From NCBI GenBank assembly GCA_030295235.1, contig AP026162.1, forward strand, positions 868,001 to 932,000: DNA of 64,000 nt. Reading direction: 5' to 3'. The notes below the pieces were generated by a model, which saw only the letters and a list, made by a program, of their open reading frames with translations, had not been told where the DNA came from and did no database searches. The stretch's first letter is position 1, and each line of letters opens with the position of its first letter. This document shows, piece after piece, positions 5,415-42,854 of the stretch. Made by a program: the position numbers and the translations under genes. The stretch is from Fistulifera solaris (taxonomy: Eukaryota; Bacillariophyta; Bacillariophyceae; Naviculales; Stauroneidaceae).

Positions 5415-5488
5415 AGCTCTAACGCGGATTCGAACCACGGACCTCCTCATTACTAATGAGGTGCTCTAACCAACTGAGCTATTAGAGC
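5415..5488 (-). tRNA. tRNA-Thr (anticodon AGU)
   Basis: The minus strand folds into a full cloverleaf of 74 nt. It has a 7-bp acceptor stem (GCTCTAA/TTAGAGC), a D-arm GCTC/GAGC with loop AGTTGGTTA, and an anticodon stem CCTCA/TGAGG with loop TTAGTAA, giving anticodon AGU for Thr. A five-base variable loop and a T-arm CGTGG/CCGCG with loop TTCGAAT complete it. There is no intron, and the discriminator base is U. CCA is not encoded, as expected for a nuclear gene. The AGU anticodon would be read as IGU after A34 deamination. Confidence 0.95.
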
Positions 5489-5626
5489 TGCTGAGTCTGA
5501 AAGAACGCTTTAACTTTACAACGGTTGCATCAAATTTAGAAAAGATAACTACTCGTACTTTTTAGCCTACCGATACCGCATTGTTGTTGTTCGTAATTGC
5601 TTTTTTCTTTCAAAATATTGCCTTTC

Positions 5627-6485: not shown

Positions 6486-6497
6486 ACACTTTACTGC

Positions 6498-11990: not shown

Positions 11991-12002
11991 GGTGAGATGC
12001 AT

Positions 12003-12529
12003 GTTTTGTTTGCTGGAAGCTCATGTTCATTTCTTTTTCGTTTTTTTCTTGGAACGAATGACCTGGGTACCAGTACGATCACTGTCTTTTGGGCGGCCCA
12101 ACGATTTTTTTGTCGACGAAATTTCTCCACTGTCGACAAAAGAATAAGAGGTGAAGTACAAAGTGAGTACCGTTTGCAAAGAGTCATCCTGACATCCTGT
12201 TGGGATGGGTCATTTTTGGTCTTTTTTCTTCATTTACTTAAGCTCAACCAATACCGGTTCACGCAAACGGCTCTACTATGCACTATCAACTGGATCTTGC
12301 CATCGTTCTCCAGACTACTTATTGAGCCACAGTACATAGTGGAATGAAATTTGGGACTGGATCGAGCCAGATCATCATCAAACACCACGCCGCCGTGAAG
12401 GTTGCGCGAAGATCTTGAAATGACCGTTTTCCGCATAAAAGAAACTTCATCTGTTGCAGTTTTGATTATCCGAAAGTAATTATCATTCGTATCTATTGAA
12501 TAGACTATTGATTATCCACCGTTTCGAAG
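12003..12529. promoter_or_regulatory. Divergent intergenic region between kinesin and giant repeat gene
   Basis: These 527 bp separate the start codons of two genes transcribed away from each other, so both core promoters must lie here. I see no clear TATA box or known element. Short open frames present here have no coding character. Confidence 0.5.
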
Positions 12530-15500
12530 ATGGCAAGCTTCTTTGGATTAGGTGGTCTCGGCTCGAGCGACAAGCGCGAGGAATCTGCTTTGATGGCGCA
12601 TGACAATCTTGGTGGTGGTGAATTGGGAAGCTCCACTGCTAAGAAAGACAAGGACGCCTCGAAGAAAAAGAAAGATAAGAAGAAACTTAAAGGATCGGAC
12701 GCAGCTCTTCACAATGCTGAACTGGCGGAGAAAGCGGCTCAGGAAATGAAGAGTGCGATGAGTTGGTGGAAACAGGGCCCTACCGGGGCAGCCGATCTTG
12801 CGAAGAACAATGACCTCAGCTGGTTGAACGATAAAGTGGAAGACGTGAGCGTGATCAGTAAATTCAGCGTGCCTGATATCGAGAAATTTCAGGAAGTTGA
12901 TAAGAATGTTGATATCATGGCGAACTTGAAAGATCGTAAGCTTCGCACCTTCAAGTACGATCCGGAAGAAGAGGCGAAACGAGCGAAAGAAATTGAAGAG
13001 CGTACGAACAAGATGTTCGACGCGGTAAACTGGTGGCAAGCAATGAAACCAGGTACCGCTGATGCGCCGACTGTTGATGTAAATGCTGGAATTGCGGAGT
13101 TTAAGGAATTGGCGCAGTGGTGGGCCGACAACGGGAACCTGCACAAGACCAACATTAAAGCCAAGCGAGCTGGGAAGATCCGTGGCTACATCAGCAAATA
13201 CAAAGGCCAGACAGCAAATATGGCGGAGGAAGCAGCAAAGATACACAAGGCGCTTTCGTGGTGGGTGAAGAACGGCCAGCAGTATCAAGTTGATTTGGTT
13301 GTGTTTGAAAAAACGTTGAGAAGCTGAAGAAAGTCAACTTTCTGTTCGATCACTGGCAGCTAAAAAGCCTCCCGGTTCGGATGCATGTTAATCCACTTAC
13401 AGATCCACGTGGCGCTGAACGATTGGCACAGAAACTTGAGACGTCTCTTGCACGCTTTATGGAGAAAGGAGAGTTCCAGTTCTCGAGAATCGAAGCGAAT
13501 GAAGCAGATCCATTTCGCCAAATTAAGCATGAACTCATTCGCATTCAGATCAGCAAGATGAGTCCTGAGCGTGTGTCTGAGGAGGTAGAATCGATCCTGT
13601 CGTGGTGGAGGGGGCAAGGAGTGTCGTTCGATCCTCACAATCCGAAGTCCCCGGATGATTTTATCATGTTTCAAAAAGCGTGTGAGCTTTTCAAATTTTG
13701 GGGGATCGAAGAACCGAAAAATGTCCCTCTCAGCCGTCTCGCGGAGCTTGAAAAGGAGATTCGCGACTCTATTTCTTTTGGAACCGCAACAAAGATGTGG
13801 ACGAGGAGCACTTGGATGCTTTCGAAATGGAAAAGCTTCGGAAGATAAAAAATGTGTCCATTAATTTGTGTCAATACATGACGGAAAAGCAGACGAAGGA
13901 GTCTATTAAAACCATTGAAGATATGATTGGCTGGTGGCGTCTGAAAGGAGGAAAGTTCAATCCGGATTCCAGCTCTCCTAGTGATCTCAAGCGTTTCGAA
14001 GACCTCAAAATGCTGTACACCAGTTACCGATGTGGACCAGACCTAGTTGCCGATATGGCAGCCAAAGAGCTCGGAGACGATCTGAACTGGTGGCTTCGCA
14101 ACAACAAAGGGCTAGATGCAAGCAAGTATAGCGATATTGATATGAATAGATTCAAAAGGGTTCAGGGTGCTATGCAGTTGTGGTTGAGCAACGGGAAAAG
14201 CAAGCAGCTGCAAGGGATGACATTCCACGACTTATCCGAACCTGATGCCACAAGCTTGGCAAAGGAAATAGTTGAGTCAATGGAGTGGTTTAACGAGTCG
14301 GGCAAGTCTTATGATGTTAAAGAGAATCGCGAAAAGCTCCGAGAGTCTTCTGTGTTTTCGAGAGAGGCAAAGAACATGTTAGTTTGGCTCAACGACCCGG
14401 AAGGCTTAAAAGGTCTCACTACGATTGATCTTGAGCACTTCGATCCGAGAGATCTTGATAAACAGGCGAAAGCTTTGAAAGATCAGATGGACTGGTTCAA
14501 GAATGAAGGGAAAAGGTTGGTGTCGCCGAAATCGACAACGAGGAAAAGTATCAAAAGGCCCAAAAATTAGCTCAGTGGTGGAATGATCACGGTCGGCCGA
14601 TCTCAAAGAGCGACGCAAAGGAAGCTACGTCAGCTATTGAGGAGATGTTGGCGTGGGCTCGAAGTGTGAAAGGAGACCCCATGCTCGATAATCCGGCCAG
14701 GTTCAATTTTCTCAAGAATCTATTCAGTGTCTGGTCACCTGAAAGGTCGTCCGGAAAAGCTCTCGATGAGCAAGTGATGAATGAAATCGAAGAGCATCTG
14801 GGATGGTGGCGTCAGGCAAAGTTTCCTATAGACATCGGAAAGCTGTCGGAGCCGGAGAAAGTCCCGGTGCAAAATTTACTGCAACTTGTTCATGCTTTCA
14901 GAGCTGCACGAGCAGGACAGAGAACGCAAGACGACGCGAGTGACGTTCTAGCCTGGACTCGCGAGTCAAATACGACGATCGAACTAGATTCTCACATAGG
15001 AAATGCATTGGAGGATGTCATGGGCTGGTTTGATGTTCAAGGTGCAAAGGACGTCTTAAAATCGCCTCTACCAGTCAGTGCCGAAGAAAAGTTCGAGAAA
15101 GTGAAAGAACATCTCGTATGGTGGGAGAGAACCGACCCGTCTGCTCGACCCAGAAAAGGTGAAATCGATCAGCTTTACCTCAAGTTTGACTTGTTGCCTC
15201 CCCCTCAAGGAGTGGTGGTCTCATCGTGGCAAGGAGTTCGCTGTCCGTAACGGTCATATGAATCTGAAAGAAGCCAAGGATGTCGATAAGAAGCTGAACG
15301 CTGCTTTCTTGTGGCTAGAGAAGAACTTAAGGGGTGCTGACATCCCTTCCGGTATCGCCACAGATGTGAACAACATGACGAATGCTTTGGGTTGGCTCAG
15401 AGGCAAGGATACTGATGCCGAAAGTATCATGTCCAAGTCTACATCAGCTGGGAACAAGTTTGCTGCAACGCGCCCCTTGACTGAAGAAGAGAAACGGGCT

Positions 15501-18500
15501 AAAGAAATGGAAGACGCGTTGAATTGGCTTCGCACCAACGACATGAACTTTGGAGACAAAAACCTTGACATTCAGTCTCTAGCAACTCTTTCAAAAATAT
15601 CCGAGATTATTCCGGGAGCCAAAAACATGGAGAAGAGCGATGTTGAAGCAACGATGGAAAGTGCTTTAGATTGGCTCCGTAGCAATGACGACACAAAAGA
15701 ATTTAGTTTAGACGACATTTCCGTCGCATCGTGGAAGAAAGGAAGGTCGGCTCTTGGTATTGCTAAGACCGATGAAGAACAGAGGGCCAATGAGATGGCA
15801 AGCGCCCTTGACTGGCTCAGAAACAACAATGTGGCAGACTCCTACGATGTCGCTTCAGTCAAATCTTTCAAATCGCTTGCCAGTTCCAACTTTCTTGCCA
15901 AAATTCCAGAGTCTGGATCCGAGGCCGACAACGGCTTTGGGTGGTTGCGCAACGATAGAGCAGTTCGTGGTTTCGATGACATGTCGGACGTGTCTTCTAA
16001 GAAAAGTGCAGGTCAGCTAGCCCTTAGACCAAAGACCGCCGAAGAGCTTCGAGCAGCGGAAATGGCAAGCGCGCTGGATTGGCTTCGTACGGAAGTTGTC
16101 GATTCCCAGTCTGTGGCTAGTGGTCTAGGCTCCCTTGCTTCCTTTCAAACAATCGGTGGCGGGAAGATTGGAGATACAAGTGAGATGGCAGCAGCTTTAA
16201 ACTGGTTACGTCAAAACGACGCTGGTCTTAGAGGTCTCGACGATCCTTCTGTAGCGTCTTCACGCAAGCTTGGAGGACCGATGACTGAAGCTGAGAAGAA
16301 AGCCCTGGAAATGCAGAAAGCTCTTGACTTGTTAAAGTCGGGTGATGCAAGTGTTGGTGGGATGTCCGCTCCCTCTATGGGATCCTTGGGCTTTAGTCTT
16401 GCTGGCGGTGGTGCAGAAAGTTCGGCTATGGAAGATGCACTGAACTGGTTAAGGGGCTACAAAGGGAATAAAGGTGACGATTTGTCGTCTGCTTCCCAAG
16501 CGCGCATTCCTCGTGGTCCAATGACTGACGAAGAGAAGAAGGCAAGTGAAATGCAGAAAGCGCTTGACTTATTGAAGTCTAGTAACGCTAGTGTTGGGGG
16601 AATGTCCGTTCCTACTGTGGGGTCACTAGGGCTAGCAGAGTCTCCAGAGATGAGTGACGTCTTTGCAAGATTCAAGAGAAGACAACTCGATGACCAGTCT
16701 ATTGGATCTGCGACTTCGCGTCCACCTTTGCCAGAACAGAGAAAATCTAGTCAGATGGATAGTGCATTGGCCTGGTTAAGAAACAACACGCCAGATATTG
16801 AAGATCTCGACATGGACACGCTCAACGCGTTTCGGAACCTCGCTGGATTGCCAATTATGGACGTTGATTTCTCCATTGACAAGAAATCAAAAGCGGTTGA
16901 TGACGCCCTCGACTGGCTGCGAAAGAACCCACCCAATGTCGAGTCTTTGGATGACGAGGCCATAGGTACTTTGGCAACCTTGGCTGGTATTGACATGCCT
17001 ACGTTTGACTTCTCTCCCGAAGACAAGGCACAAGCGTTTGACGACGCACTGGCATGGCTGCGGGTGAACGGTCTTGATGCCAATGACATTGATGATGTAA
17101 CCCTAGTTAGCTTTGCTAATCTAGCCGGTCTGGATATGCCTTCGAGGGGAGCCTTATCTCCTGGTGACAAGAAGAGAGCGGTTCAGGATTCTATGAGCTG
17201 GTTACGTAGTAACAACCCTACGATCGAAGACGTACAAGCACTGGATGATGACGCCCTTCAAGCCTTGTTGAAAATTAGTGGAGTTGACATAGCACGAAGA
17301 AAACCGAAAAAGCTTTCTGATGGACAAAAGGAAAACATCATAGAAGGAGCACTCGATTGGCTCCGAAACAATGATTTCACCCCTAATGTCTTGGACGATG
17401 CTCTGGTGTCTGCTTTGAGCGACTTATCTGGACTCCCCATGCCTAAGAGAACTATTTCCGAGAAAGATAAAGTTCGCGCAATGGATGAAGCACTTCAGTG
17501 GCTCCGTCAAAAAATCAGGACTTTGGAGATCTCGACGAAGGCAAATTAGTTGCTCTTGCTGAATTGGCGGGTCTTGCGATGCCACGACGCAAAATAGGTG
17601 GCGACGCTGAAATTAAAAGAACTGTCGTGGAGGGTGCTATGAGTTGGATTCGGAGCAAGAAAGCGAAGCCCAACGCCATTGATGATCCAACGTTAGCGGC
17701 ACTGTGCGACATGGCTGGCTTGGATCTTCCAGATGTCTTTGTTCCAAGCGAAGATAGAGAAGATGCTATGAGAACCGCCTTGGAATGGCTGAGAAATAAC
17801 CAGCCTGATCTCGAAGGTGTCGACTTTGACGACACATCCATCTACGCGTTTGCCAATTTGGCCGGACTCGACTTGCCACGAGGGAACTTAAATGAAACGC
17901 AGAAAAAGGAGGTTGCATCACAAGGACTTCAATGGCTTAGGAACAACGATGTAAACGTTGAAGAACTTGATATGCCGAGCTTGACCGCTCTTCTTAACAT
18001 GGCGCGTGTTGACCTTCCGGCTGCTGAATTTACAAAGAATGATCGCGAGAAAGTAATCGATGATGTCCTGAAATGGATCCGATCCAAAGCTTCGTCCAAG
18101 GTATTTGTCGACGAGCTACCAGGTTTGAACGCGCTTCTTCAATTGGCGGGAATGTCCGCTCTCCCTGATAAAGACGCCTTGAATCCTGCTGCGCACGCGA
18201 AGGCCGCATCAGAGGCACTTGTGTGGCTCCGTAACCATCAACCGAAGAAAGAAAATGTAAACGACCCGATGCTTTATGAACTTGCAAGACTGGGTGGCAT
18301 CGACTTGCCAAGGATGGAAGTTTCGAAAGAAAACAAGAAACGGGCTGTAGACGATGCTCTCCAATGGTTGAGAGCTAACGAGCTCATTGTTGAAGATCTG
18401 GACGACGTGGACATAGCCGCCTTCGCCACCCTGGCCGATTTACCGCTTCCCCAAGGAACGTTATCTAGCCCTGAGAAGCACCGCACGATGGATGCTGCTC

Positions 18501-21500
18501 TTACGTGGCTCAGGGAAAACAATCCTCATCTTGCGGATGTCGACGCCGCCACTGTTGAGGCTTTCAAGAATATTCCTGGCATTCCTCTTCCGAAGAAAGT
18601 TTCCTCACTTGACAGGGCGAAGAAAGTAGAGGAAGCGTTTGAATGGTTACGGAATAATGACCCCAATTTGAATGGATTGGACGAAACGAGTTTAATGGCC
18701 ATTGCCAAGCTGTCTGGAGTTCCGATTCCGCGAAAGAATCCGTCTTCGGAAGAAAAGACAAAACTTGCAGAACAAGCGTTGGTGTGGCTAAGAAATAACG
18801 ATGGAATCAATGCAAACGACGTTGGACTGCCTGTTGTAGCAGCCTTAGCCGACTTGTCCGGGATTCCACTTCCGCAAAAGAAGGTGACAACAGAGTCAAG
18901 AACGAAGACCGTGGCTGACGCCCTCCACTGGCTCCGAACACACGATACGCTACATCTGGATGATACAACCGCTTTAGCCCTGGCGAATGTGGCTAATTTA
19001 GCACTTGATATCCCACGAGGAAGAGAAAGGGCTAAGCTTTTCGATGATGCGATGCACTGGATAAGGAACAACAATGTGAATGTCAATAACGTGGATGAGC
19101 CTACCTTGCGAACTCTCGCTCAAGTATCCGGAATAGATTTACCGAAGGGCAAACTGACGACATCTGCCAAAAAGAGAGGTCTCAACGATATAACGGAGTG
19201 GCTTCGAAACAGCCAAATCACACATGAAAACCTTGACGATCCAGCCTTGCATGCTCTTGCCAAGGTCGCACACATGATGTTACCGAACAAGCGCCCAATG
19301 CCCTCTAACAGCCAAGCTGTTATAGATAAGGCCTTACATTGGATCCGAGAGAATAATCCCAATTTGAAGAACGTGGACGACCCAAGCTTGCGAGCTCTCT
19401 CGAGTCTTGCCGGACTTTCGTTACCGAAAGGGAATCTATCCTTGTCTGCGAAGAAAAGCATTTTTGACGATACGCTGCAATGGCTTCGAAACAATCAAGT
19501 CAGAGAGGAAGACATAGACTATCCGACACTACTTGCTCTTGCTAACATCGCAGGGTTGCCTCTCGAAAGAATCCCTTCGACGAATGATGAGATCGTAGAT
19601 TCCGCTCTTAATTGGATCAGACATAAAACACCAAAGTCCAGTGATCTAGATGAACCAACGTTACGGGTTCTTGCGAAGCTCGCCGGGGTCGATTTGCCCA
19701 CTTCGAAACTCAGCGCCGATGCTATGCGAAAAGGGCTACACGACACCGTCAAATGGCTTCGGACCAATGATGTGAGGCAAATGGACCTCAGCGAACCGAC
19801 AATAGATGCGCTCGCAATTCTGGCGGATATTCCTTTACCGGGTGGTCGTTGTCAGCAAGCGCTTGATAGGAAGAGACTTTTCAAAGATTCTGTAAAGTGG
19901 CTCCGATCAAACACTCCGAAGATCTCGTCAGTCGGGGAACCTGATTTACGTGCTCTGGCCGAGTTGGGTGGAATTCCTTTGCCTGTTGGTAAGCTCACTT
20001 TGGTGGATAAGACAAACGCTCTTCATGATGTGCACCAATGGATACGCAACAGCATCGTGAATTACAGTGAGTTAGACGATCCTACTTTACGTGCCCTTGC
20101 CAATATAGCTGAAATTTCGCTTCCAGCATCGATGGCCTTGCCGAAGAATGTTCAAGAAGATGTCGACGTGGCTTTGCAGTGGATCCGCAACAACTACCCA
20201 AAAGCTAACGAAATCGACGACCCAACCTTACGCTTATTGACCGATCTTTCTGGCACAAAACTGCCCAAAGGAAAGTTGTTCCCTTCTAGTCGGCAGAAAG
20301 CACTTGACGATTCTCTGCAGTGGATCCGTCAAAATGGCTTGCAGGCCAAGGACCTCGACGAACCGACCATCTCGGCCTTGCAAACGCTATCTGGTATCGT
20401 GTTACCTCGATCAAAAATGACAACTCCCGAGAGAATTGTCGAGGGCGTCCTGCAGTGGGTCAGATTCAACGACCCCGACGCTAGTAAGGTTGATGACCCT
20501 ACCCTACGAACTTTGACCAATCTTTGTGGAATTGAATTGCCGAACCGCAAGCTTCACCTTAAGGAGAAGCAGCAAGCTCTTGATGGGGCTGTACGCTGGC
20601 TTCGTGAAAACAGCTTCGAAGTGGGAGGGTTGGACGATCCTGTAGTACAAGCTCTTGCCAATTTATCGGGGACACAAATGCCTTTTTTGGCTGCCACGCC
20701 ATCCTCCACCGATCAAATGGTGAAAGATGCTATTGAATGGTTGAGACACAATTCTCCCCAAGTAAAGGATATTGACGACCCAAGCTTACTGGCTCTAACA
20801 CGCATGAGTGGAGGGGATCCTGTCGAGGTCGTTAAAGCTAGTCCGGAAGGGAAGCAGAAAGCTTTGGATCATGCATTAGAGTGGCTTCGTAACAACGAAG
20901 TGTTCTTCGGAGACCTCGACGATCCTGAAATCAAGGCCCTTGCCAATCTTTCTGGCATTTCGCTCCCGATTGAAGCAGGATTGCCTATTGACAAAAAGTC
21001 AACTGTTGACAAAGTCTTACGATGGTTGCGCGAGAACAATACCCCAAGCCCCGAGGACCTGGATGAAGATACCATACGCACCTTGGCAAAACTTGCAGGG
21101 CGGCCGCTACCACGTGGCGTTGTCTCCTATGAGAAAAGGGAGAAATCGCTTGAACACTCTGTGGACTGGTTACGGAATAATCCTTTTGATGCCGAAGGCC
21201 TCGATGAGCCCACTCTTCAAGCATTAGCGAACTTGGCTGGGATTCCAGCAGTTCGTGTTTCGGGCTCTATTCAAAGTCAACAAGCGACGGTAATGAAGGA
21301 TGCTCTTGAGTGGCTCAGGAACAACAATGTAACAGCTGCAGACTTAAATGATCCCTCAGCACTTGAGGCTCTTTTCGATCTGGCAGAGATCGAATTCCCT
21401 GAAGGACTTAAAGTTGGTGGAAGTAAAACGATTGACGATTGTTTGAATTGGTTACGTAGCAACGAACTCAATCCGAATCAGTTGGACGACCCGACTATTC

Positions 21501-24500
21501 AATCTTTTGCTAATATGGCAGGTGTACCTCTAGCTGGGGATTCACTATCAAGGAATCAGAAGGGCTTGATTGTTGAAGATGTCTTAGACTGGCTGAAGGA
21601 GAATGAACCGAACCTAGAGGACATGGACGGACCCAGTATTCGCATTCTTTCCAACCTTGCTGGAAGACCACTTCCTAAAGGAAAGATGACGAAGAATGCA
21701 AAGAAGAAGGCTCTGGACGATTCAATCGAGTGGCTCCGCAGCAACAGACTCAATGGAGAGTCGCTCAGTGAGCCGGTCGTCAAAGCACTTGCCGATTTGG
21801 CTGGTGTATTGTTACCACGTGGGTCTATTCCAGATGAAGAAAAGGCACGAGTCGTCGCCGATGCATTAAGCTGGGTTCGAGGCAATATCTCACCATCCGT
21901 GAATGACGTTGACGAGCCGACCTTGCGAGCCCTTAGTACTCTGGCAGGGCAGCCTCTCCCACGCGGTAGATTATCCCAACCGGAGAAGATTCAAGCCCTC
22001 GCTGATGCATTGAATTGGTTGAGAGCTAACACCCCCGATTATCGCTTTTTGGATGATCCATGCGTTCATGCTCTGGCAAATCTCGTTGGAATCACTTTAC
22101 CTGGTTCCAAGCTGATACCTGACGCCACAAAGCAGGTTATTCTCGACGAAGTTCAGGAGTGGATGAGAAACAGCACACCGAAGGCCGATGACATTGACGA
22201 GCAGGGCCTTCGACGACTTGCGAGCCTTGCAGGAATCGAGCTTCCCCATGGGAAACTATCTTCTGCGGTAAAACAGAAAACTCTTGATGACACACTTGTC
22301 TGGATGAGGACAAACGATACAGACCCAAGGAAAGTAGACGATCCTTGCCTTCACGCTTTAACTACACTTTCAGGAATTCCCTTTCCTCGCGGTGACATCC
22401 CACCTGACCATAAAAAAGTTGTCATGGAACAAGTTTTGTCATGGGTTCGAGCCAACAATCCGGTTGCAGATGACATCGACGAGCCAACTTTGCGTACTCT
22501 TTCGACAATGGCAGGCACCCCGCTCCCAAAGGGGAAACTGAACCCTTTGGTAAAACAGGAAGTGCTGAACAATGTTGTAGAATGGTTGCGAAGAACGAAC
22601 CCCGATCCGTACAACATTGATGACCCCTCAATCTTGGCTCTGGCGAACGTAGCGAGCATCAAAATGCCAAATGGTGACATTCCTTTGGACGAGAAACGTC
22701 AAGTTCTCAAGGATGCTTTGGAGTGGGTGCGACACAGTGATGCAAAGCCTGAAAACCTTGACGATTCTAGTATGCGCGCATTATCGAATCTAGCCGGGTC
22801 CCCTCTCCCTCGTGGTCCACTCTCTCGAAAGGACAAGAAGATGGCATCAGAGAACGTATTGAAATGGTTAAGAAACAACCAGCCAAACCCGGCTGATCTA
22901 GATGACAGTACCATTCAAGCCCTTGGGAATCTTTGTGGTATTCCGTTGCCTAGCATAAGTATTCCGAAGAATAAAAAGCAGCTGCTGCTTGATGCTGCTA
23001 TGGATTGGGTTCGCGTTCATGACCCCAAGTCAAATGATTTGGATGAGCCGACTATCAGAGCTTTGGCGACAATCACAGGGATTCCGATGCCAAAAGGCAA
23101 ATTATCGCGACCGGCAAGTGAAAAGATCCTACGTGACGCTATCACATGGTTGAGAAGTAATTCAGTTGATCCAAATGACCTTGATGATCCTTCAATTCAC
23201 GCGCTTTCGACACTTACAGGTATTCCTCTAGCGCGGGGAGCTATCCCTGTCGAAAAGAAGCGAATCGTTCTAGAAAACGCTCTCCAATGGATACGAGATA
23301 ACAAACCAAAAGCGGAAGATTTAGATGAACCAACTGTGCGGACGCTGTCAACTCTTGTCGGCACACCCCTAACTCCAGGTAAGCTTTCCCGTCCACAAAA
23401 GAGAAAGCTTTAGGCGATGCGGTCGAGTGGCTGAGGCATAACAAGCCGGATGCATATCTTCTTGACGATCCAGCAGTCCATGCACTCGCGAGCCTTTCGG
23501 GGTCGTTTTTACCCCGTGGAGATTTGCCTGTTCACAAGAAACGCACTGTTGTTGAGGACGCAACAGAGTGGCTACGAAATCATCAAGTAAACGTTGCTGA
23601 TATAAGTGAACCTGAATTGCGTGCTCTCTCAAATCTCGCCGGAAAACCCTTGTCACGTGGAAGACTTGCTTCAAAGGATAAAACAGAAGCCTTAGACAAT
23701 GCTATTCAATGGCTTCGTCGCAACGATGTTGACCCGAATGACATTGACGACCCGACCGTCTTTGCGTTGTCATCCCTCGCCGGGTTTCCTTTGCCAAAAG
23801 GTCAAATTCCTTACGAAGATAAAGCGCCAATTGTAGCAGACTCTCTCGATTGGATTAGAGAGAACAAGGATGTAACACCCGATGATTTGAATGAACCCTC
23901 TGTCCGTGTTCTCTCAACGTTGGCTGGGATCTCGCTTCCTGTTCGCAAGCTTACTCCACAAGAGAAGAAGGAAGCGATCGACAACTCAATGGCCTGGATG
24001 CGTGAAACAACGCTCAATCCCCACGACTTAGATGACCCAGCAATCCATGCCCTTGCCAACTTGGCTGGACTATCGCTTCCGAAGAGATCTATATCCAAAG
24101 CCCAAAAGACAGCTGTTTTGGAGGACTCACTTGAATGGCTGAGATCAAAGAGTCTTAGTTCGGAACATCTCGACGCTCCTGCGCGCGTTCTTCTTTCAAA
24201 TCTCACCAACAAAGCACTAGATATTCCTCCCAAAGTACAGTCGAAAAGGGATACATTTGAAGATGCCGTTGAATGGATTCGTGGAAACAACATCAATCCC
24301 GATGATCTAGATGAGCCAGCCCTTGTTGCTTTATCTAATATGTCTGGCATTCCACTTCCCAAGGGCAACATCCCGGTGAAACAGAAAGAAAAAGCTCTCA
24401 AATCAGCCTTGGATTGGATCAAGAATCATGAATCGCTTCCAGATGATCTCGACGAGCCGTCGATTAGGTGTCTTTCGAGCTTAGCGGGCTTGCCTTTGCC

Positions 24501-27500
24501 TAGAGGCAAATTGTCTGCTCCGGTGAAGAAAAAGTCTTTGGATGAGGCAGTCGAATGGCTCAGGCACAACTCGCCCGATGTACACAACATCGATGATCCA
24601 ACCACCTACGCATTAGCTAATCTTGGGCGCGCGCCGATTCCTGAATATTCCATTCCTTTTGAGAAAAAAAGCCCCAGTAGTGGAGGAATCACTGGCGTGG
24701 GTCCGTGATAATGAACCCAAAATGAACAATCTTAGTGAACCCGCTTTGCGTTGCCTGGCAAATTTAGCGCACATTCCGTTATCCAGAAGCAAACTTTCCA
24801 CCCCCGAAAAGGAAAAGGTTCTTGGTGATGTTGTCAATTGGTTACGATCGAACGAAGTTCATATCCGAAACCTTGACGACCCCACAGTCCATGCTCTAAG
24901 TACTTTGGCGGGGCTTTCGATACCTCAAGGCACAATTCCCATCGACAAGAAACGAAATGTCGTCCGAGATTCTCTCCAATGGGTACGAAGCAACGCACCG
25001 AGTGATGATAATGTAACTGAGCCGACTGTTCGAGCCCTTGCAAATCTCGCTGGACTTATTCTCCCAAGAGGGACCCTTCCGAAACCAGCCAAAAGAAAAG
25101 CACTTGATGACATCTTGGATTGGTTGCGGTCGAACGAACCTGACGTTTACGCCTTGGATGATCCAGAAGTTTATGCACTTGCATCAATTGCAGGTATTCC
25201 GATGCCAACGTCTGGTCGAGGACTTGCCGAGAGCGTTAAACGCCCTGTAGTCGAGCAAGCGATAGACTGGGCACGGAACAACTTAGGCGCTCCGGACGAT
25301 TTGGATGAACAAACCGTTAGAGAACTATCTAACTTGGGAGGCAAACCTTTGCCGCGGGGACGACTTTCCAAACCAGCAAAAAAGAAGGCGCTAAGTGATG
25401 CAATAGCATGGCTTCGTGATAATCAACCCAACCCTGATGAGCTGTGTGATCCAACCGTTTACGCGCTTGCGAAATTGGCCTCGGTTCCGTTACCACAAGG
25501 ACTTATACCACTTGAACAGAAAGAAGATGTATTGAAGACAACACTGGAATGGATACGCAACAACGAACCGAAGCTTGGTGACTTGGACGGACCAACCTTG
25601 CGCTGCCTGTCTAACTTAAGTGGGACGCCCCTCCCAGTAGGAAAGATGAAACCAACCGAAGAAAAGGTTGTTCTGAACAATGTAGTGGAGTGGTTGAGAC
25701 ACAACGACCCCAATCCTAGTGAACTGGACGACCCCACAATTGCGGCTCTCGCCAACTTGTCTGGAATGCAGCTTTTACCAAGGGATCTCCCAATCGCCAC
25801 GAAAAAAGCCATCTTGGACGATTCACTGGAATGGCTACGCAACTCTGATCTAAGACCCGAGGACTTGGACGAGCCTTCCCTTCGATCTCTTGCAAACTTG
25901 GCCGCTGTACCAATACCCCAAGGAGGTGTCCTTTCCGAAGTAAAAAAGAAGACCTTGGATGACGTTGTGAATTGGGCACGAGTGAACAACCCAGATTTGG
26001 CTGATGTTGACGATCCCACTCTTCACACTTTGGCTAATCTAGCAGGGACTCCAATTACCACCAGAAATATACCCTTGGAGCACAAACAACATGTCGTTCC
26101 AACTTCTGTTGATTGGTTGAGAATGAACACTCCAAGTAAAAAGGATTTGACGGAGCCATCGTTGCGGGCACTCGCAAATCTTTCTGGTTTGTCTCTTCCT
26201 AAGAGGAAACTCTCGCCAAAGGAAATAGAGAATGGATTTGATGATGTATTGGAGTGGCTCCGCACCAACTCGCCTAGCATCGAAGAAATGGATGACCCAA
26301 CTCTTCACGCTCTAGCAAATTTGAGCAGCGTTCCTATTCCTCGAGGTAACATTCCATCAAAGAGCAAGAACTTTATTATTGACCAAACTGTAGACTGGAT
26401 TCGCAAGAAAGACACTGTCATTGGAGACGTCGACGAGCCGACTGTCAGAGTGCTCTCAAATTTAGCGGGGCGTCCTCTCCCACCAGGCAAGCTACCTGCC
26501 GCTGCGAAGCAGAATGCACTAGATGACGCAATTGAATGGCTCAGACATCATAAACCTCATCCACATGATGTTGATGACCCAACAACTATCGCGCTGGCTA
26601 GCATTGCGGGTTTATCGATTCCCAGAGGCAACATTCCGATCGAAAAGAAGGGGCCTGTTTTGAAAGATTGTCTTGATTGGGTCCGAAATAACCCAGTCAG
26701 TCCCGACGATGTAGATGAACCCACTTTGCGCACTCTGTCCAATCTAGCAGGCTCGCCGCTTCCACAAAGAAAGCTCTCCCCAACTGAAAAGAGAGATTCG
26801 TTGGACAAAGCAGTCGACTGGCTTAGACGAAACAATCCGAATCCATCAGACCTTGATGACCCTACTATGTATGCTTTGTCAAGTCTTTTTGGGGTGCCGC
26901 TACCACGCGGTGAAATACCCGTTTCTAAGAAAGTGTCAGTTATCAAGACGTCACTTGAATGGATCCGCAACAATGACCCTTCACCAGACGATATTGACGA
27001 GCCCGCGCTACGTGTCCTTTCTAACATGATCGGACATCCTTTACCACGAGGCGGAATCCCTGCCACGTCAAAAGCAAAGGCCCTCGATGAAGTTGTTGAA
27101 TGGCTGAGAAACAACAACCCAGATCCATTCGTGGTTAGTGACCCAACGACAGTCGCACTAGCTAATCTCGCGGGCGTCCCCGTTCCGAAAGGGGGGCTAC
27201 CTTGTGACCAAGTTGAACGTTTAGTTCAAGATACACTTGAATGGCTCCGAAAGAGTAACTCGATCCCAGATGTTATCGACGAACCATCCTTGCGAGCGCT
27301 ATGTAACCTTGCAGGTGCCCCGCTTCCCAGAGGTAGACTAACCCCAGAGCAGAAAGAAAATGCTATGCATGGTGTGGTAGACTGGTTACGGAACAACAAC
27401 CCCGATCCTTACGATATTGATGACCCTACTGCCGTAGCACTCGCCAACCTGGGCGGACTTCCGACGCCGTTGGTTGACACCGTCGTTGAACAGAGGGCTC

Positions 27501-30500
27501 CGCTTGTTGAAAGCGTTCTAGACTGGCTTCGATCAAACAATCCTGACTTATATGATATCGATGAGCCCACGATTGCCGTTATTTGCAACTTGCCAAACGG
27601 TGACGTCCATCAACCAAAGATTCCTGAATTGAGTGATGACCAGGTCGTTGATAGCGTCTTGGACTGGCTTCGAAATAACACACCTGGCGATGAGAAAGTT
27701 GATGATCCGACTGTTAACGCCTTGGCTAATTTATCCGGTATCCCGGTACCGCGCGGAACAATTCCGCTCGATCAATCTCGCCCCATAGTCGACGAGGCAC
27801 TGGACTGGGTACGACGAAATGAACCGAAGTGCGATGATCTAAGCGAACCCGATTTGCGCGCCTTGTGTAACTTGGCAGGATGTCCTCTTCCGCGCGGACG
27901 CGTCGCTTATCCTGAGAAAGATAAGGCTTTCAACGATGTTATAGACTGGCTCAGAATCAACAAACCCGATCCAAATGAAGTCGACGACCCAACCACAGTG
28001 GCACTAGCCAACTTAATGGGTGTCCCTTTGCCACGGCGATCTATCCCGGATGACAAAAAGAAGTTTGTCGTCGAGGAGTCACTTGACTGGGTTCGTCATA
28101 ATGAACCTACTGTCGACTATTTGAAGGTACCGGACTTGCGTGCTCTGGCGAACTTGGCATCAGTCCCGCTCCCTCAAGGAAAACTTTCACCTGAAGTAAA
28201 AGAGAGTGCACTTGACGAAATTGTTGATTGGTTACGTACGAACGATCCCAGCCCGCTTGATTTGGATGATCCGACCATCCATGCACTTTCAACGCTCTCT
28301 GGTGTCCCTCTTCCGAGGGGTAACATGCCATTGGAAAAGAAACGTGCTGTTGTTGAACACAGCCTTGATTGGTGCCGTATCAATAAACCGGAACCAGAAG
28401 AAGTTTCAGAACCTAACGTTCGAACCCTTTCGAATTTGGCAGGAATCAATCTCAACCCCGGCCGACTGCAGCCCGATGAAAAATCGAAAGCATTAGATGA
28501 CGTGATGGACTGGCTGAGGACTCACAATCCCGAGCCCTCCGACCTTGATGATCCATCTGTAATAGCATTGTCAAACATCTCGGGCGTCCCGCTACCGAAC
28601 GGAGAAATCCCCACGGAAGACAAGAAAGTCATTATCGACGATGCGCTTGAATGGGTTCGTCACAACGAACCAACACCAGATGTTCTCAAGGAGCCTGATC
28701 TCAGAGCTCTTTCAAACCTTGCTGGGTTTCCTCTCCCGCGAGGCAGGCTCAGACCATCTGAAAATACTGACGCATTTGAGAACATCGTTGAATGGCTCCG
28801 CCAGAATAACCCGGATCCGAACAATGTTGACGATCCCACGACCCAGGCGCTCGCAAACTTGTCAGGTTTGCCGATGCCCAGAGGGATCCGTTCCATTCCT
28901 ATTGAAAAGAAGCGTCCTGTGATAAAGGAAGTTATGGACTGGATTCGTAACAATGAAGTTGCGCCTGAAGACGTTGATGAACCCACACTGAGAGAGCTGT
29001 CGATTTTAGCGGGATCGCCGTTACCAAATGGAAGGCCGACCCCAAAAGAGAAAGAAGAGTCTCTTGATAATGTGATGGAATGGTTGAGACGAAACGAGCC
29101 CAAACCCGATGATGTTGACGATCCTACAACACAAGCTCTATGCAACCTGTCCGGACTCCCGCTACCATGTGTGGACCTTCCCCTTCCGAGCAAAAGAGCT
29201 GTGGTAGAGGACACAGTCGATTGGATCAGGCATAATCGCCCTCAGCCTGAAACCGTTTCAGAGCCCGACTTGCGTGCCCTCGCAAATCTCAGCGGGGTCC
29301 CACTTCCCAATCGAAAGCTTTCCCCTCAAGAGAAAGCGGAAACCCTAGATGAAGTCATGGATTGGTTACGGCATAACAAGCCGGACCCTAAAGATCTTGA
29401 CTCACCATCAACAATAGCGTTGTCGAATATTGCCGGAGTGCCGATCCCTCGTGGTTCCATTCCACGTGAAGAAAAACAACCTGTCGTCGAACAAGCCTTG
29501 GACTGGCTCCGCACGCGCGAACCGAGTCTGGAAGATTTTGACGAGCCTACGTTACGAGCTCTCGCGAATATGGCCGGTGTACCGCTCAGTCCCGGAACAC
29601 CATCTCAGTCCGATAAAGAACAAGCTGTCGCTGATGTCATGGACTGGATCCGCTCCAAAGACCCTCACCCGGATGATTTAGACGACCCAGTTGTGCATGC
29701 ACTTGCAAATATTGTGGGTTTGCCTGTCCCACGCGGTGAGATCCCTGTTGACCAAAAGAAACCTGTAATTGATGACGCCATCGACTGGTTGAGGCATAAC
29801 ACACCAACGCCAGAAGATATTGATGAGCCGACGCTTCGACAACTATCGAACTTGGCAGGAAAACCCTTGCGACGTGGACATCTTTCGTCTCCGGATAAGC
29901 AGAATGCATTAGAAGATATAATTGATTGGTTGAGGGAAAATAAGCCGAAGCCCGAGTACGTCGATGATCCAACTACGATAGCACTGGCCAACATTTCAGG
30001 CGTGCCTTTACCTAAGGGTTCGCTACCAATGAATGAACGAAAACCAATCATTGATAGTACCATGGAATGGATTCGTAAAAATGAACCGGCCCCCGAAAAC
30101 CTTGACGAGCCGTCCTTGCGCGCACTTGCTAATCTCACTGGGCACCCTGTTCCTCGTGGTGCAATTTTGCCTCACAAGAAGAAAGATATAGTCGATGATG
30201 TGATTGAATGGTTGCGTTCGCATGATCCCCGCCCAGAAGATCTTGACGATCCGACAATAACGGCGCTGGCTAATCTTGTCGGACTTCCACAACCCTCTTC
30301 TCAACCAGTAAAACAGAAGGGACCAGTGTTAGAAGAGGTCTGTGACTGGCTCCGAAGCAACAAACCCCAAAAGAGAAGCATCGATGAGCCAACTCTCTCT
30401 TCGTTGTGTAATCTAGCTGGGATTCCGCACCCTTCTCGCGGAGTTGGAGAAGTTCCAGTACAGAAAGCGATTGATGATGTCGTAGATTGGCTTCGAGTTC

Positions 30501-33500
30501 ATGAGCCGAGTTTAGAGGACATTGATGAGCCCACTGTTACTACTTTGGCGAATATTGCCGGATTGCCGCTTTCTGGAAATCCAAACCCCACGAAGGAAGA
30601 GGTAATAAAAGATGTCATGGACTGGATCCGTACCAACGAACCGGAACCTGATCATTTAGACGAGCCTACAGTACGTGCTTTAACAAACCTTGCTGGAATT
30701 CCGCTGAAACCAGGTCGTCTATCTCCTTTAGAGAAAAAGGAGGCACTGGATGACGCGTTGGACTGGATTCGAAACAATGAGCCGTCCCCGCAAGACATAG
30801 ACGAGCCTGCAACAGAAGCGTTAGTTAACATCGCGGGACTTCCAATTTCCCGAAGACAAGTTCCTGCTGTAGAGAAAGAATATATCATCGACGAAGCAGT
30901 GGACTGGATTCGCCACAACGAACCTAAGTCCAAGAATGTATCCCAACCTGACTTGGTTGCTCTCACAAATTTAGCTGGTTTGCCAACTCCGACCAATCCA
31001 ACGCCTCTACAGAAAGACAAAGTTGTTGACGACGTCGTTGAGTGGCTGCGACACAATGACCCGAATCCTGGCAATGTGGACGAGCCAACAATGGCGGCAC
31101 TGGCCAATATCGCTGGAATTCCGCTTTCACAGGGAATTGTCACACCGAGTGATAAAAGAAGGCAATCGAAGACGTAATGGACTGGGCAAGACAGAAAGAT
31201 CCAACACCTGGCGACATCGACGAACCATCTACACAGAAGCTTGCCCGTCTCGCTAAGGTTCCTCTCCCTACGAACCCAGTCAAGAAAAAGGCTTTGAACG
31301 ATGTTATGGATTGGTTAAGAACGAATCCCAGTGTTCACGAGATCGACGAACCAACTGCTCGAGTACTGGCGGACCTATCCGGCCAACCTCCTCCGAAGAC
31401 AAAAATGTCTCCAGCCGAAAAGTCTGTATTGCTGGATGACATTGTTGAATGGCTAAGGAATAACGAACCAACCCCCGATTTTTTCGAGGAACCAACTCTT
31501 CACGCTCTAGTGAACATTGCTGATGTGCCTCAACCGTCGAAGGAACTTCCCATAGAAGACAAACACCGTGTCCTTGACGAAGCAATGGAATGGATTCGCA
31601 GCAATGAACCCAAAGCTAAAGACGTGGACGTGCCAACATTGTGTTCTCTTGCAAATCTCGCCGATATACCAATCCCAGAAAAACCGTTAACAGAACCAGA
31701 GAAGAGAACGCTTGTCGAGGACTCGTTAGACTGGCTCCGTTCTAATCGTCCGAATGTTGATCTGGATGAGCCAACCTTGATTACTGTTGCAAATATCGCA
31801 GGCGTTCCGGTTCCGAAATCCTTGACTCCGGAAGACAAGAGTAGTATAGTTGAGGATACAGTAGACTGGCTGCGAAACCACCCCCAGAACCAGACAACGT
31901 AACAGAACTAGAGGCAAAAGCTATTGCCTCCCTTGCTGGCGTTCCTCTCCCAAAAAAGCTTCCGCTGCCACTGAAAGAAAAGATCTTGGATGATGTCGTG
32001 GACTGGCTGAGGAAAAATGAACCAGGAGCGGAAGTGGTCGATCTTCCTACTGTCTCAGCAATAGCAAATCTGACGGGGGTCAATATACCGTCCATTGTAT
32101 CACCCGAGGAAGCGAAGAGGACGGTGGATGATACTTTGGAATGGATTCGCTCTAACGAGCCGAACCCATCAAGTATTGATGAACCTACACTCATTTGTCT
32201 TGCCAACGCAACGGGCACACCGCTTCCAAACATGACGTCTCCCGAAGATAAGCAAAAGTTCATTGATGATTCTCTTGATTGGATTCGACAGAACCCTCCA
32301 ACGCCAGAAGATGTGGACACACCGACGCTTGGTGCACTAACGAACCTAGCTGGAGTTCCGAATCCGGATCGCCCATTGGGATCCCAGGAAAAGAAACAGG
32401 TGATAGACGACGTGGTAGATTGGCTAAGAAGAAATGAACCTAACCCAGATGACGTTGACCAGCCAACCCTTCTTGCGATGACTAATTTGGCAGGGACCCC
32501 GTTTCCTCTGACTGAGCTGGCTCTTGAACCTTCTGAGGAACCATCGTTTGACTGGACCCGACAGAAGGGTCCGAAGTATGGATTGGACAATCCAACTCGT
32601 CCACAAGTGAGCAACCTCCCCATGGTTCCTGTCAATGCGCTACCACTCGACGAAAAAAAGCAAGCAGTTGAAGATGCGCTTGATTGGTTGCGAAACAATG
32701 AGCCTCCACTTGACGATGTTGACGAGCCAACGTTACGAGCATTCACAAACTTAGCTCAAATTCCTTTGCCCACGGAAATGAGCCCAGAAGAGAAAGCCAA
32801 AACGGTGGATGACTTCATGGAGTGGATCCGAAGCAATGAACCAAAACCGGGTGACGTTGATTTACCGACTCTCACTTCATTGGCCAATATTGCTGGTGTT
32901 CCAGTAACTAAAAAGCTATCGCCGGAGGACAAGAAGAAAGTTCTTGACGATTCAATTGATTGGCTACGTAATAATACACTCAATCCCGAAGATCTTGACA
33001 ATCCCTTAATTACTAGCATCGCGAACATGGCAGCTTTGCCGATGCCGGAAAATGTTAATCCCGAAGACAAGATCAAGGCTATGGAGGAAGCTATCGATTG
33101 GATAAGAAACAAAAGTCCCGATGAACTTTTGGAGCCTAGCGGTTTTGTGCCGAATAATTTGAGCGGAGTGGAACTCCCCCCGCCGGATAGGGAGAAAGAT
33201 GTCGAGACAGTCATGGATTGGCTACGAAGCAAAGGTGCTAATATACCCTACGAGGAGCCGGAGCCCTTAACATCCAAAAACATTCCCCCGGTTCCAGTAA
33301 AAAGGCCGGAACAAAAGACCAAGGCAATGGAAGATGCTATTGATTGGCTTCGTAGCAAGAAGCCAGGACATCCGGATGAAGAAATTAGTCCCATACAATT
33401 TCAAAATATACCATCTGTTGATGGAATACCACAGCCGCAGGATACACCCAGCTGGGATTGGAACCGCAATAGCAATCCACCAGGAATCGACGAACCTCGT

Positions 33501-35174
33501 CCTTTAGAGTATCCTAGAGCACCAGGACAAGAAACTCCTCGGCAATCTCAGGCCCAGGATGGAGCTACGCCAGTTCAACTGGAACAAGAGGAGCCTGCTT
33601 GGGACTGGAACCGAAACCGTGAACCTCCAGGGACTGATGAGCCACTTCCCCTACAGTTCCCGAGAGGACCGGGACAGGAGACTCCTCTTCAGTCTCAGGC
33701 CAGGGACGGAGCTACACCAGCTCAACTGGAACAAGGCGAGCCTGGTTGGGACTGGGCTCGTAATCGTGCACCCCCGGGTGTCGACAACCCGAATCCTATG
33801 AACTACAAGAACCTTCCCGGCCCAGACGTAGAGAATCCTGGATTTGACTATGACCTGGAGCCCATTGACAACCCGGACGTTGTTGATGGATCAGCTCCGT
33901 GGGCGTCAGCACCTGACGAAGCGTCCGACGACGGCCGGGGTCCAAAGCCGATGGCCCTTCCAGAAGACATATATAGCGAACCTTCTTCGGAAGAGCAAGA
34001 GGAACCAAAAGGAACTGTGGTCCCCGTACCGATGATGCTTACAGTTGCTATACTGGGATCAATCATTGGTTCGGCGGCGATGTCTGCTGCGCCTCCCGTT
34101 CAGCCTGTTCCACCACCAGGGACAGTTGGCCCGACTAGTCCTGGAACACAAGTACTACCCGATTTACCAGTCGTACCCGACATTCCTTGCATAGAAGACC
34201 CGGCATGTAATTTCATTATGGGTGCAATTGACCCTGTGTACCCTCCAAGTACAAGAGCGCTCATTAATATCCCAGGAACTTGCCAAAACTGGTCAAGAGA
34301 ATGGCTGCGAACCGGCAAAGATATAATGGAATTCCAAGTCGAGCGAATTAGGCAGCGTTTCGCAATGGCTCTTGTGTACTGTGAGTTCAATGGTGACAAT
34401 TGGTTGGAGGGCGAGTTGTGGGTCTCTGAGCTGCATGAATGCGATTGGTATACAATGATCGGTGTAGACCCATGTGGCCGCCGTGAACAGTATCAAATTA
34501 TCAGAAATACAGGCCAGCAGATGCGCGGTACACTTCCGCCTGAGATCGGTATGATATCATCCCTCTGGGAAATTAGTCTCTCTGATAACCTGCTTTCTGG
34601 AACAATCCCGGAAGACTTGAATCGACTAAGTGAATTGGACACTGTGTCTCTGTCATTCAATCTTCTCACGGGTACTATCCCGTCTTTCATGTATGAATTT
34701 TACGACATGACTCACATGGATCTTGCTTACAATTTTTTCGAGGGACAGTTACCTAACAATAAGCTTAGCGTATCTCAGCCAAATCTCCAAGTGCTCTTTC
34801 TGGAGAATAATGACCTGAGTGGGCCTCTGCCGGACGATCTTGGGCAACTTCCGCTGAAGAAACTACACTTGGACGGAAACCAGTTCAGCGGAAAGATTCC
34901 CGAAAACATTCATACACCCGACATGGAAGAGCTCATGCTGCACAACAACCAGCTCACTGGTACCTTCCCAACCAGTGAGTTTGCCGCAGATGCCGCCGCC
35001 GCAGCAGCAAATCCGAAAAAAGTATCCCCACTGAGAGAAGTAAGCCTTCAAAACAACAAGTTGGAGGGCAGCGTCGACGACATGTGCCCTTTAACAACCC
35101 CAAACGTCGGCAGCCTTGCCACCTTCCAAGTCGACCCAACTGTAGACTGCAGCTGTTGCACTACAGGCGTTTAG
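12530..35174 (+). CDS. Giant (~7,550-residue) helical-repeat membrane protein with C-terminal LRR domain
   Basis: One gene of 22.6 kb, family not recognised. No signal peptide: it starts MASFFGLGGLGSSDK, then a lysine-rich stretch. From 12.7 to 15.25 kb there are about 18 diverged helices marked by WW or WF (MSWWKQ, VNWWQ, LSWWRGQG, IGWWRLKGG). Irregular ALDWLR repeats run from 15.3 to 16.75 kb. From 16.75 to 33.2 kb I count about 117 units of ~47 residues: helix 1 ALDDAxxWLRxNxP, helix 2 DLDDPTxxALANLAG, then a PLPRG turn. Three WDWNRN proline-rich repeats follow (33.4-33.8 kb), then one membrane span (LTVAILGSIIGSAAM, ~34.03-34.09 kb), and about six LRRs with a Cys-rich cap (34.2-35.17 kb). 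The predicted topology is repeats in the cytosol and LRR outside. Nine single-base frame changes occur (near 13311, 13795, 14518, 15205, 17508, 23397, 24667, 31155, 31880), seven as missing bases and two as extra; correcting them gives exactly 7,550 codons. Confidence 0.85.
16750..33200 (+). repeat. ~117 tandem protein-coding repeats of ~141 bp, partly in 282-bp pairs
   Basis: Unit length is about 47 codons. By hand I count 6 units before 17.55 kb, 41 to 23.4 kb, 9 to 24.7 kb, 46 to 31.17 kb, and about 15 after that. From about 21.9 to 30.3 kb two kinds alternate almost strictly. The first has DDP in helix 2 and PRGxIPxxKKxxVV after the turn. The second has DEPTLRxLSNLAG and PRGxLSPxxKxxALDD. 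The higher-order period there is ~282 bp. Nucleotide identity between units is low while the protein pattern is tight, so the array is old and under protein-level selection. Confidence 0.9.
34190..35174 (+). other. LRR ectodomain segment of the giant protein
   Basis: A cysteine-bearing cap (IEDPACNF, ECDWYTMIGVDPCG) leads into LRRs of the plant/diatom type: LPPEIGMISSLWEISLSDN, SGTIPEDLNRLSELDTVSL, GTIPSFMYEF, SGPLPDDLGQLPLKKLHLD. A small Ala-rich insert (~34985-35015) interrupts the last repeat. The domain closes with a cysteine cluster, DCSCCTTGV, at the very C-terminus. This cap-LRR-CxCC layout is typical of diatom LRR membrane proteins, in which a short cytosolic part, rather than ~7,000 residues, normally precedes the membrane span. 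Confidence 0.8.
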
Positions 35175-37169: not shown

Positions 37170-38285
37170 ATTTGATAGGAGTCGTTGGTTCGGTAGCAGC
37201 TAGCAGCTTGGCTCGGCAAAAAATAGATTCTGCGTGACTGAATTGCAGTCGTGGCGAAGGTCGTTTACACTTTAGGCCCATAGTAATATAGAGATCGACG
37301 ATCCGCAAAGTCTCTCGACGTCTAGCATCGTGACGGGGACGGCAAATGCTTTGGAATGTATTATTGTCGTGCAAATGACAAATGTAGCCTCATTTAATAG
37401 GAGTTCGAAACGAAGCGTCGGTAGTAATTTGGCTCAGAAGATTTTTTCAACGTGACTGAATTGCAGTCGTGGCGAAAGGTCGTTTACACTTTAGGCCGAT
37501 AGTAAATATAGAGATCGACGATCCGCAAAGTCTTTCGACGTCTAGCATCGTGACGGGGACGGCAAATGCTTTGGAATGTATTATTGTCGTGCAAATGACA
37601 AATGTAGCCTCATTTTAAATAGGAGTTCGAAACGAAGCGTCGGTAGTAATTTGGCTCAGAAGATTTTTTCATCGTGACTGAATTGCAGTCGTGGCGAAAG
37701 GTCGTTACTTTAGGCCCAAAGTAACTAATATAGAGATTGACGATCCGCATAGTCTTTCGACGTCTAGCATCGTGACGGGGACGGCAAATGCTTTGGAATG
37801 TATTATTGTCGTGCAAATGACAAATGTAGCCTCATTTAATAGGAGTTCGAAACGAAGCGTCGGTAGTAATTTGGCTCAGAAGATTTTTTCAACGTGACTG
37901 AATTGCAGTCGTGGCGAAGGTCGTTTACACTTTAGGCCGATAGTAAATATAGAGATGGACGATCCGCAAAGTCTTTCGACGTCTAGCATCGTGACGGGGA
38001 CGGCAAATGCTTTGGAATGTATTATTGTCGTGCAAATGACAAATGTAGCCTCATTTTTAATAAGAGTTCGAAACGAAGCGTCGGTAGTAATTTGGCTCAG
38101 AAGATTTTTTCAACGTGACTGAATTGCAGTCGTGGCGAAGGTCGTTTACACTTTAGGCCCATAGTAAATATAGAGATGGACGATCCGCAAAGTCTTTCGA
38201 CGTCTAGCATCGTGACGGGGACGGCAAATGCTTTGGAATGTATTATTGTCGTGCAAATGACAAATGTAGCCTTATTAAATAGTCG
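37170..38285. repeat. ~220-bp tandem repeat, about five units
   Basis: The marker GAATTGCAGTCGTGGCGAAG starts at 37240, 37458, 37680, 37900 and 38121, giving periods of 218, 222, 220 and 221 bp. Each unit also carries CTTTAGGCC, GACGATCCGCA, TCTAGCATCGTGACGGGGAC, AATGTATTATTGTCGTGC and GTCGGTAGTAATTTGGCTCAG. The central units are more than 95% alike by eye; the first and last are diverged or partial, as expected for an array growing by unequal exchange. Open frames through it repeat with the unit and are not credible genes. No transposase, terminal repeat or polymerase box was seen. Confidence 0.9.
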
Positions 38286-41285: not shown

Positions 41286-41470
41286 AGTGATTTTATCACG
41301 TACCCAGAAAATGTGGGGAGGTGGTGTTATCACGTACCCAGAAAATGTGGGGATGTGGTGTTATCACGTACCCAGACAATGTGGGCATGTGGTGTTATCA
41401 CGTAGCCAGAAAATGTGGGGATGTGGTGTTATCACGTAGCCAGAAAATGTGGGGATGTGGTGTTATGGCC
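41286..41470. repeat. ~35-bp repeat, left flank of the large palindrome array
   Basis: Five direct copies of ATCACGTACCCAGAAAATG followed by TGGGGATGTGGTGTT, period 34-36 bp. The core CCCAGAAAATGTGGG is a loose palindrome. The same unit returns on the right side of the 52-bp array. Confidence 0.85.
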
Positions 41471-41480
41471 CAAAACAATA

Positions 41481-42850: not shown

Positions 42851-42854
42851 CAAA

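What the first reader, a model, noticed from the sequence alone, without database searches (positions are those of the whole stretch)
12530..35174. A ~7,550-residue membrane protein made of ~117 two-helix repeats ending in an LRR ectodomain
Seen directly: continuous coding across 22.6 kb, with nine single-base frame changes; after correcting them the length is exactly 7,550 codons. The order is diverged WW helices, ~117 ALDWLRNN/DDPTxxALANLAG units, a Pro-rich linker, one membrane span, LRRs and a Cys cap. Known: diatom LRR membrane proteins with this cap and tail usually have a short cytosolic part. Inference: a ~7,000-residue cytosolic helical rod or spring tied to an extracellular recognition or adhesion domain, possibly a mechanical link between cell surface or silica wall and the cytoskeleton. 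I know no named family with this repeat.
Basis: partly seen in the sequence, partly recalled or inferred. Interest (0 to 1): 0.92.

Follow-up and report, generated by a model that had tools for sequence, protein, structure and literature searches.

The report
Giant repeat-cable membrane protein of diatom
A diatom genome encodes one enormous protein of about 0.84 megadaltons that joins a probable cell-surface recognition domain to a cable of more than a hundred copies of a two-helix unit we could match to no known family, and it may be a mechanical tether between the cell surface and the cell interior.

Summary
The genome appears to be Fistulifera solaris, an allodiploid diatom (a published 23-base site matches exactly, twice). 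A second copy of the locus (94.3% DNA identity) lies on contig C2. All 29 indels between the copies inside the gene are single bases; read together the copies give one open frame of 7,549 residues plus stop. Nine breaks fall in the window copy and 16 others in C2, so I read them as assembly errors. dN/dS is 0.185.

The protein has a Trp-rich N-terminus, 115 strong units of a ~47-residue two-helix repeat (122 at i-E < 1e-3), a Pro/Asp linker, one modest hydrophobic span and an LRR ectodomain related to short-tailed LRR membrane proteins of the same genome. New here: central units alternate in two types (94-residue super-repeat); the copies differ by no in-frame indel; the ectodomain is nearly frozen (dN/dS 0.022) while the array is moderately constrained. 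No convincing Pfam, NCBIfam or PDB match; found at this locus and its C2 copy only.

Best reading: a single-pass protein whose ~7,160-residue cytosolic rod acts as a long tether or filament scaffold. Anatomy is near certain; topology and function are inferred. Other diatoms could not be searched.

The parts
12530..35174 (+). Whole gene: one reading frame of 7,549 residues plus stop, calculated mass 835.6 kDa
   Evidence: Open when read over both genome copies; purifying selection; mass
12530..15467 (+). Residues 1-980: Lys-rich start, then Trp-rich (W/WW) region, 36 Trp
   Evidence: coordinates; no convincing Pfam or PDB match; dN/dS 0.122; the one model made of part of it is unusable (pLDDT 42.9)
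15468..16727 (+). Residues 981-1400: degenerate repeat units
16728..33050 (+). Residues 1401-6842: main array, 115 units of about 47 residues, two helices each
   Evidence: model; coordinates
33051..33404 (+). Residues 6843-6960: last, degenerating units
33405..34016 (+). Residues 6961-7164: Pro-rich acidic linker (18.6% Pro) with WDWNRN motifs
34017..34073 (+). Residues 7165-7183: the one hydrophobic segment above 1.6 (1.96), possible membrane span
34074..34520 (+). Residues 7184-7332: Pro/Thr linker and Cys/Trp N-cap of the LRR domain
   Evidence: Cap motif shared with relatives in the genome (by eye)
34521..34976 (+). Plant-type leucine-rich repeats (approximate borders)
34977..35171 (+). 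C-terminal cap with Cys tail
   Evidence: by eye

Best explanation
The locus encodes one intact giant single-pass membrane protein. The LRR and Cys-cap domain faces outwards (or into a vesicle) and binds a ligand under strong constraint. The ~7,160 residues before the span lie in the cytosol as a long acidic rod of more than 115 two-helix units, paired A/B in its central part, ending in a Trp-rich domain with a Lys-rich tip. It works as a tether or filament-binding scaffold: the ectodomain grips mucilage or wall material, and the rod spans a long distance, or lies along a repeating cytoskeletal partner, so that force or position is passed across the membrane. Shown: gene integrity, unit anatomy, A/B period, conservation pattern, LRR kinship. 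Inferred: topology and tether role. Speculative: the partner.
For: One open frame under purifying selection in two copies. 115 strong units with 0 in-frame indels between copies. A/B period: 0 of 1,000 unit orders reach the observed even-odd difference. Two helices per unit. LRR domain related to a family with tail, span, linker and ectodomain, readable in 7 of 15 loci inspected. No hydrophobic N-terminal segment; Cys 10 of 366 after the span against 25 of 5,560 in the array. Span and ectodomain have 3 amino-acid changes in 379 codons, dN/dS 0.022, against 0.20-0.25 in the array: a frozen binding end on a more tolerant rod.
Against: The span is weak (1.96, against 2.70-3.38 in the seven relatives read) and is preceded by acidic residues, the opposite of the positive-inside rule (rule recalled). 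No known actin- or microtubule-binding domain is detected. The A/B alternation fades outside the central 59 units (36 of 57 agree). No expression, localisation or partner data. pTM 0.61 and one of five models at pLDDT 51.7 leave rod geometry uncertain.
Confidence: 0.45

Rival explanations
1. Silica-wall version: the protein sits in the membrane of the silica deposition vesicle, ectodomain in the lumen, and the cytosolic array couples the vesicle to microtubules or actin that shape the valve.
For: Models propose that membrane proteins of this vesicle link silica patterning to the cytoskeleton (PMC5647440, passages). The same type of topology would serve.
Against: The described silicalemma proteins have a signal peptide, a long lumenal N-terminus and a short cytosolic C-terminus (PMC5647440, passages): the reverse arrangement. 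No signal peptide-like segment here.
Confidence: 0.15
2. Receptor scaffold: the ectodomain senses a chemical signal and the array is a docking platform with many equal sites for a signalling partner; mechanics play no part.
For: The nearest solved sequences to the ectodomain are mostly plant LRR receptors; repeated A/B units could be repeated docking sites.
Against: No kinase or other signalling domain found. More than 115 units is far more than known docking scaffolds use (recalled).
Confidence: 0.15
3. Inverted or secreted version: the array is outside the cell, like a giant adhesive strand.
For: The span is weak and acidic on its N-terminal side. Adhesive-trail proteins of about 0.9 to over 1 MDa exist in another raphid diatom (PMC11420354, passages).
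Against: No hydrophobic N-terminal segment; relatives that could be read show a tail before the span; few Cys in the array.
Confidence: 0.1
4. Several shorter genes or a decayed pseudogene rather than one protein.
For: Nine breaks in the window copy and 16 in C2.
Against: No break is shared between the copies; all are single bases; every segment is under purifying selection; the neighbouring kinesin gene is also split between frames, pointing to assembly-wide errors.
Confidence: 0.03

Closest known systems
LRR membrane proteins of the same genome (e.g. C36:180308-181315, C37:171757-172776)
   Same: Span, linker, cap motif and LRR ectodomain in the same order; 30-31% identity of the C-terminal part
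   Different: At most about 300 residues of open frame precede the span in the six relatives read to their start (a seventh, L034, is cut); here about 7,160
Giant nesprins, spectraplakins and other spectrin-repeat linkers (recalled, not fetched)
   Same: Giant cytosolic helical repeat rod; in nesprins also a C-terminal membrane span
   Different: No spectrin, CH or KASH match among Pfam hits; different repeat; large LRR ectodomain
Plant LRR receptor ectodomains
   Same: Plant-type LRR sequence, best PDB matches
   Different: No kinase found; opposite order, ectodomain at the C-terminus
CaTrailin4 and Ca5609 of Craspedostauros australis (PMC11420354, passages)
   Same: About 0.9 to over 1 MDa, modular, from a raphid diatom
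Silicalemma-associated proteins (PMC5647440, passages)
   Same: Single span, suggested link to the cytoskeleton
   Different: Small cytosolic part at the C-terminus, signal peptide, Ser-rich lumenal part

Membership tests
Diatom LRR membrane proteins (family in this genome) | LRR domain related in sequence to the family | tested here: met
   136 places in the genome at E <= 0.001, the locus and its C2 copy among them; Pfam LRR
Diatom LRR membrane proteins (family in this genome) | Cap motif before the LRRs (RYALA..YY..NGD.W...CDW) | tested here: met
   By eye in the giant and in 5 of the 7 readable relatives; the print-out ends before it in the other two
Diatom LRR membrane proteins (family in this genome) | Membrane span before a linker | tested here: inconclusive
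   Single segment, 1.96 against 2.70-3.38 in relatives
Diatom LRR membrane proteins (family in this genome) | Short cytosolic tail | tested here: not met
   About 7,160 residues before the span; so it is filed as a variant, not a typical member
Spectrin / plakin / nesprin linkers | Spectrin repeats, CH or KASH domain | tested here: not met
   None among Pfam hits up to E 1 for 8 pieces covering most of the protein
Spectrin / plakin / nesprin linkers | Binding to a cytoskeletal filament | not testable with these tools
   Needs biochemistry
TPR / HEAT / ankyrin alpha-solenoids | Recognisable fold | tested here: not met
   0 of 77 listed Foldseek PDB matches at E <= 0.001 for a model of moderate confidence; no such family significant in Pfam
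UBA domain | Match of a whole domain | tested here: not met
   UBA_DHX29 scores 37.8 bits (cut-off 27) on one array piece and 20.5 on another, with 0 significant single stretches; best stretch 14 residues
Secreted adhesive-trail proteins | N-terminal signal peptide | tested here: not met
   No hydrophobic N-terminal segment in the hydropathy scan; SignalP itself not available

The most novel reading that the evidence does not exclude
The protein is the missing through-membrane force link of raphid-diatom gliding: an LRR ectodomain gripping the mucilage strand in the raphe, and an elastic 0.8-MDa cytosolic rod of fixed unit number and A/B pitch that registers along raphe-associated actin and supplies the mechanical compliance inferred from live imaging.
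Probability: 0.15. Interest if true: 0.93.

Novelty: new variant of a known kind. Interest (0 to 1): 0.64.

Why it matters
If the topology holds, this is a giant membrane-to-cytoplasm tether built from a repeat that matches no family searched here, apparently evolved apart from the animal tethers. How diatoms carry force across the membrane and the slit of a rigid silica wall is an open question (PMC11420354, passages), and this gives a concrete candidate, in what appears to be a species for which editing of both gene copies has been published (PMC13276009, passages).

Tried and rejected
Pfam models UBA_DHX29, DUF6570, CTLH, DUF2388 and BACK pass their whole-protein cut-off on one or more array pieces; I reject them because none has a significant single stretch and the best stretches are 14 to 33 residues. 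NCBIfam matches all lie below cut-off. Homology between the Trp-rich N-terminus and the array was looked for with the unit HMM: hits before residue 980 are insignificant (i-E 0.057-0.4). A single-sequence model of an N-terminal stretch was unusable (pLDDT 42.9). Viral and prokaryotic collections gave no relative; those scans use six short patterns and find close relatives only. A 37-row alignment of overlapping windows slipped (403 columns) and was replaced by 13 non-overlapping ones. In-frame indels in other LRR pairs were a weak control for fixed length, because those stretches include non-coding flanks. Conservation of the Trp and the residue two places on is partly by construction, since units were picked with a W-x-R/K/E anchor. 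Literature: eight searches listed no paper that I recognised as describing this protein or repeat, and none on gliding by Fistulifera; I saw passages of seven papers and no whole paper.

Full report
Source and second copy. The window is C1:868001-932000 of a 51.7-Mb, 61-contig genome. A published Fistulifera solaris target site of 23 bases (PMC13276009, passages) occurs exactly twice, on C7 and C8; the same pattern read backwards occurs 0 times. F. solaris belongs to Naviculales (that this order is raphid is recalled) and is described as allopolyploid with 42 homoeologous chromosome pairs (PMC5935921, passages). That the genome is F. solaris or a very near relative is my inference. The locus recurs on C2 at 94.3% identity; I take the two as homoeologous copies, but alleles are not excluded.

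Integrity. Inside 12530-35174 the copies differ by 29 indels, all of one base, while flanking DNA also has indels of 2 to 8 bases. Reading over both copies gives 22,650 nt without an internal stop, 7,549 residues. By my count from that list nine breaks belong to the window copy and 16 to C2; two compensating pairs are left as alignment noise. The nine lie at or next to base runs, as expected of long-read assembly errors. The kinesin gene next door is also split between frames. Substitutions favour third positions (720 against 259 and 181), dN/dS is 0.185, and no stop falls in frame in C2. 7,109 of 7,550 codons, stop included, translate alike. There is no transcript evidence.

Anatomy. Residues 1-980 hold 36 Trp after a Lys-rich start. 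Residues 981-1400 hold degenerate units. The main array, 1401-6842, has 115 units at i-E < 1e-3, 122 over the whole protein, 0 in 20 shuffles; the HMM was built from 81 of these units, so their own hits are not independent. Of 130 anchor spacings 82 are exactly 47. Apart from the Trp and Arg that served as anchor, the best conserved positions in the 81 units are Leu-35 (76), Pro-30 (72), Gly-40 (67), Asp-28 and Pro-44 (66 each). Units are 37% identical on average and at most 70%, and TRF lists no DNA repeat in the gene, so the array is old. Its calculated net charge is about -236.

A/B super-repeat. Units an even number apart are more alike (0.41-0.44) than units an odd number apart (0.34-0.36), for every offset up to 24. 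Trained on 59 central units, leave-one-out parity is right for 58 of 59; among the other 57 units 36 agree, so the pattern fades or shifts towards the ends. 0 of 1,000 random unit orders reach the observed difference.

Structure. AlphaFold2 on six units, with 13 non-overlapping windows as alignment, gives two helices per unit (17 and 10-11 residues) with Pro-rich loops between units, mean pLDDT 80.7, pTM 0.61; the five models score 80.7, 79.3, 76.4, 74.8 and 51.7. Foldseek has 0 of 77 PDB matches and 0 of 99 viral matches at E <= 0.001. The profile of 22 units finds nothing in the PDB better than E 0.16.

C-terminal domain. Pfam finds LRR_1, LRR_4 and LRR_8; most of the 60 shown of 106 PDB matches are plant LRR receptors. 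The genome has 136 matching places, a lower bound, including the locus and its copy. I inspected 15 loci: in 7 (L012, L013, L016, L020, L024, L028, L034) the longest forward frame shows a tail, a strong span (2.70-3.38) and a linker, the cap motif being visible in 5; L034 is cut at its start. The other 8 showed no such frame, mostly because the longest frame printed was not the LRR frame, and were set aside. The giant's own span is weaker (1.96), with acidic residues before it.

Selection contrast. Span plus ectodomain: dN/dS 0.022, 3 changes in 379 codons. N-terminus 0.122, degenerate units 0.108, linker 0.106, array 0.204-0.25. Within 81 units, changes between copies are few at the core positions (0 at Leu-35; 1 each at positions 6, 16, 18, 20 and 38) and many at surface-like ones. 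The outward end is nearly frozen, while the array keeps its fold and its number of units, as a spacer or scaffold would. That last step is inference.

Distribution. Unit matches in this genome: 65 of 65 lie at this locus and its C2 copy; the N-terminal piece likewise, 4 of 4. No relative in the viral or prokaryotic collections. Other diatoms could not be searched here, so whether it is raphid-specific, or already annotated somewhere as a hypothetical protein, is unknown.

Mechanism. The anatomy fits a long tether or filament scaffold anchored by a recognition domain. The prevailing gliding model needs a continuum of molecules from raphe-associated actin across the membrane to the mucilage, and reports mechanical compliance in the machinery (PMC11420354, passages). 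Models of wall formation also call for links between vesicle membrane and cytoskeleton (PMC5647440, passages). LRR protein expansions in other raphid diatoms have been linked to signalling or attachment (PMC7335047 and PMC9054022, passages). Nothing here decides between these. I give the general tether reading 0.45 and the gliding-specific reading 0.15.

Noticed in passing
about 9600-12000, minus strand: Kinesin motor gene transcribed divergently from the giant gene; the two starts are about 530 bp apart by my reading. The stretch 10022-12600 is also collinear in C2 (87.0%). Its frame is split, too.
   Followed up: partly
6498-8189, minus strand: Acidic Ser/Asp-rich repeats (TRF periods 99, 198 and 393 bp), perhaps the tail of the kinesin gene or a separate gene.
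   Followed up: no
47066-48133 and 49203-50215: Two tandem short-chain dehydrogenase genes, 96% identical, both copies also present on C2.
   Followed up: no
37233-38282; 41461-42859; 60108-60991; 62273-62805: Minisatellite arrays with periods of about 221, 52, 227-241 and 67 bp.
   Followed up: no
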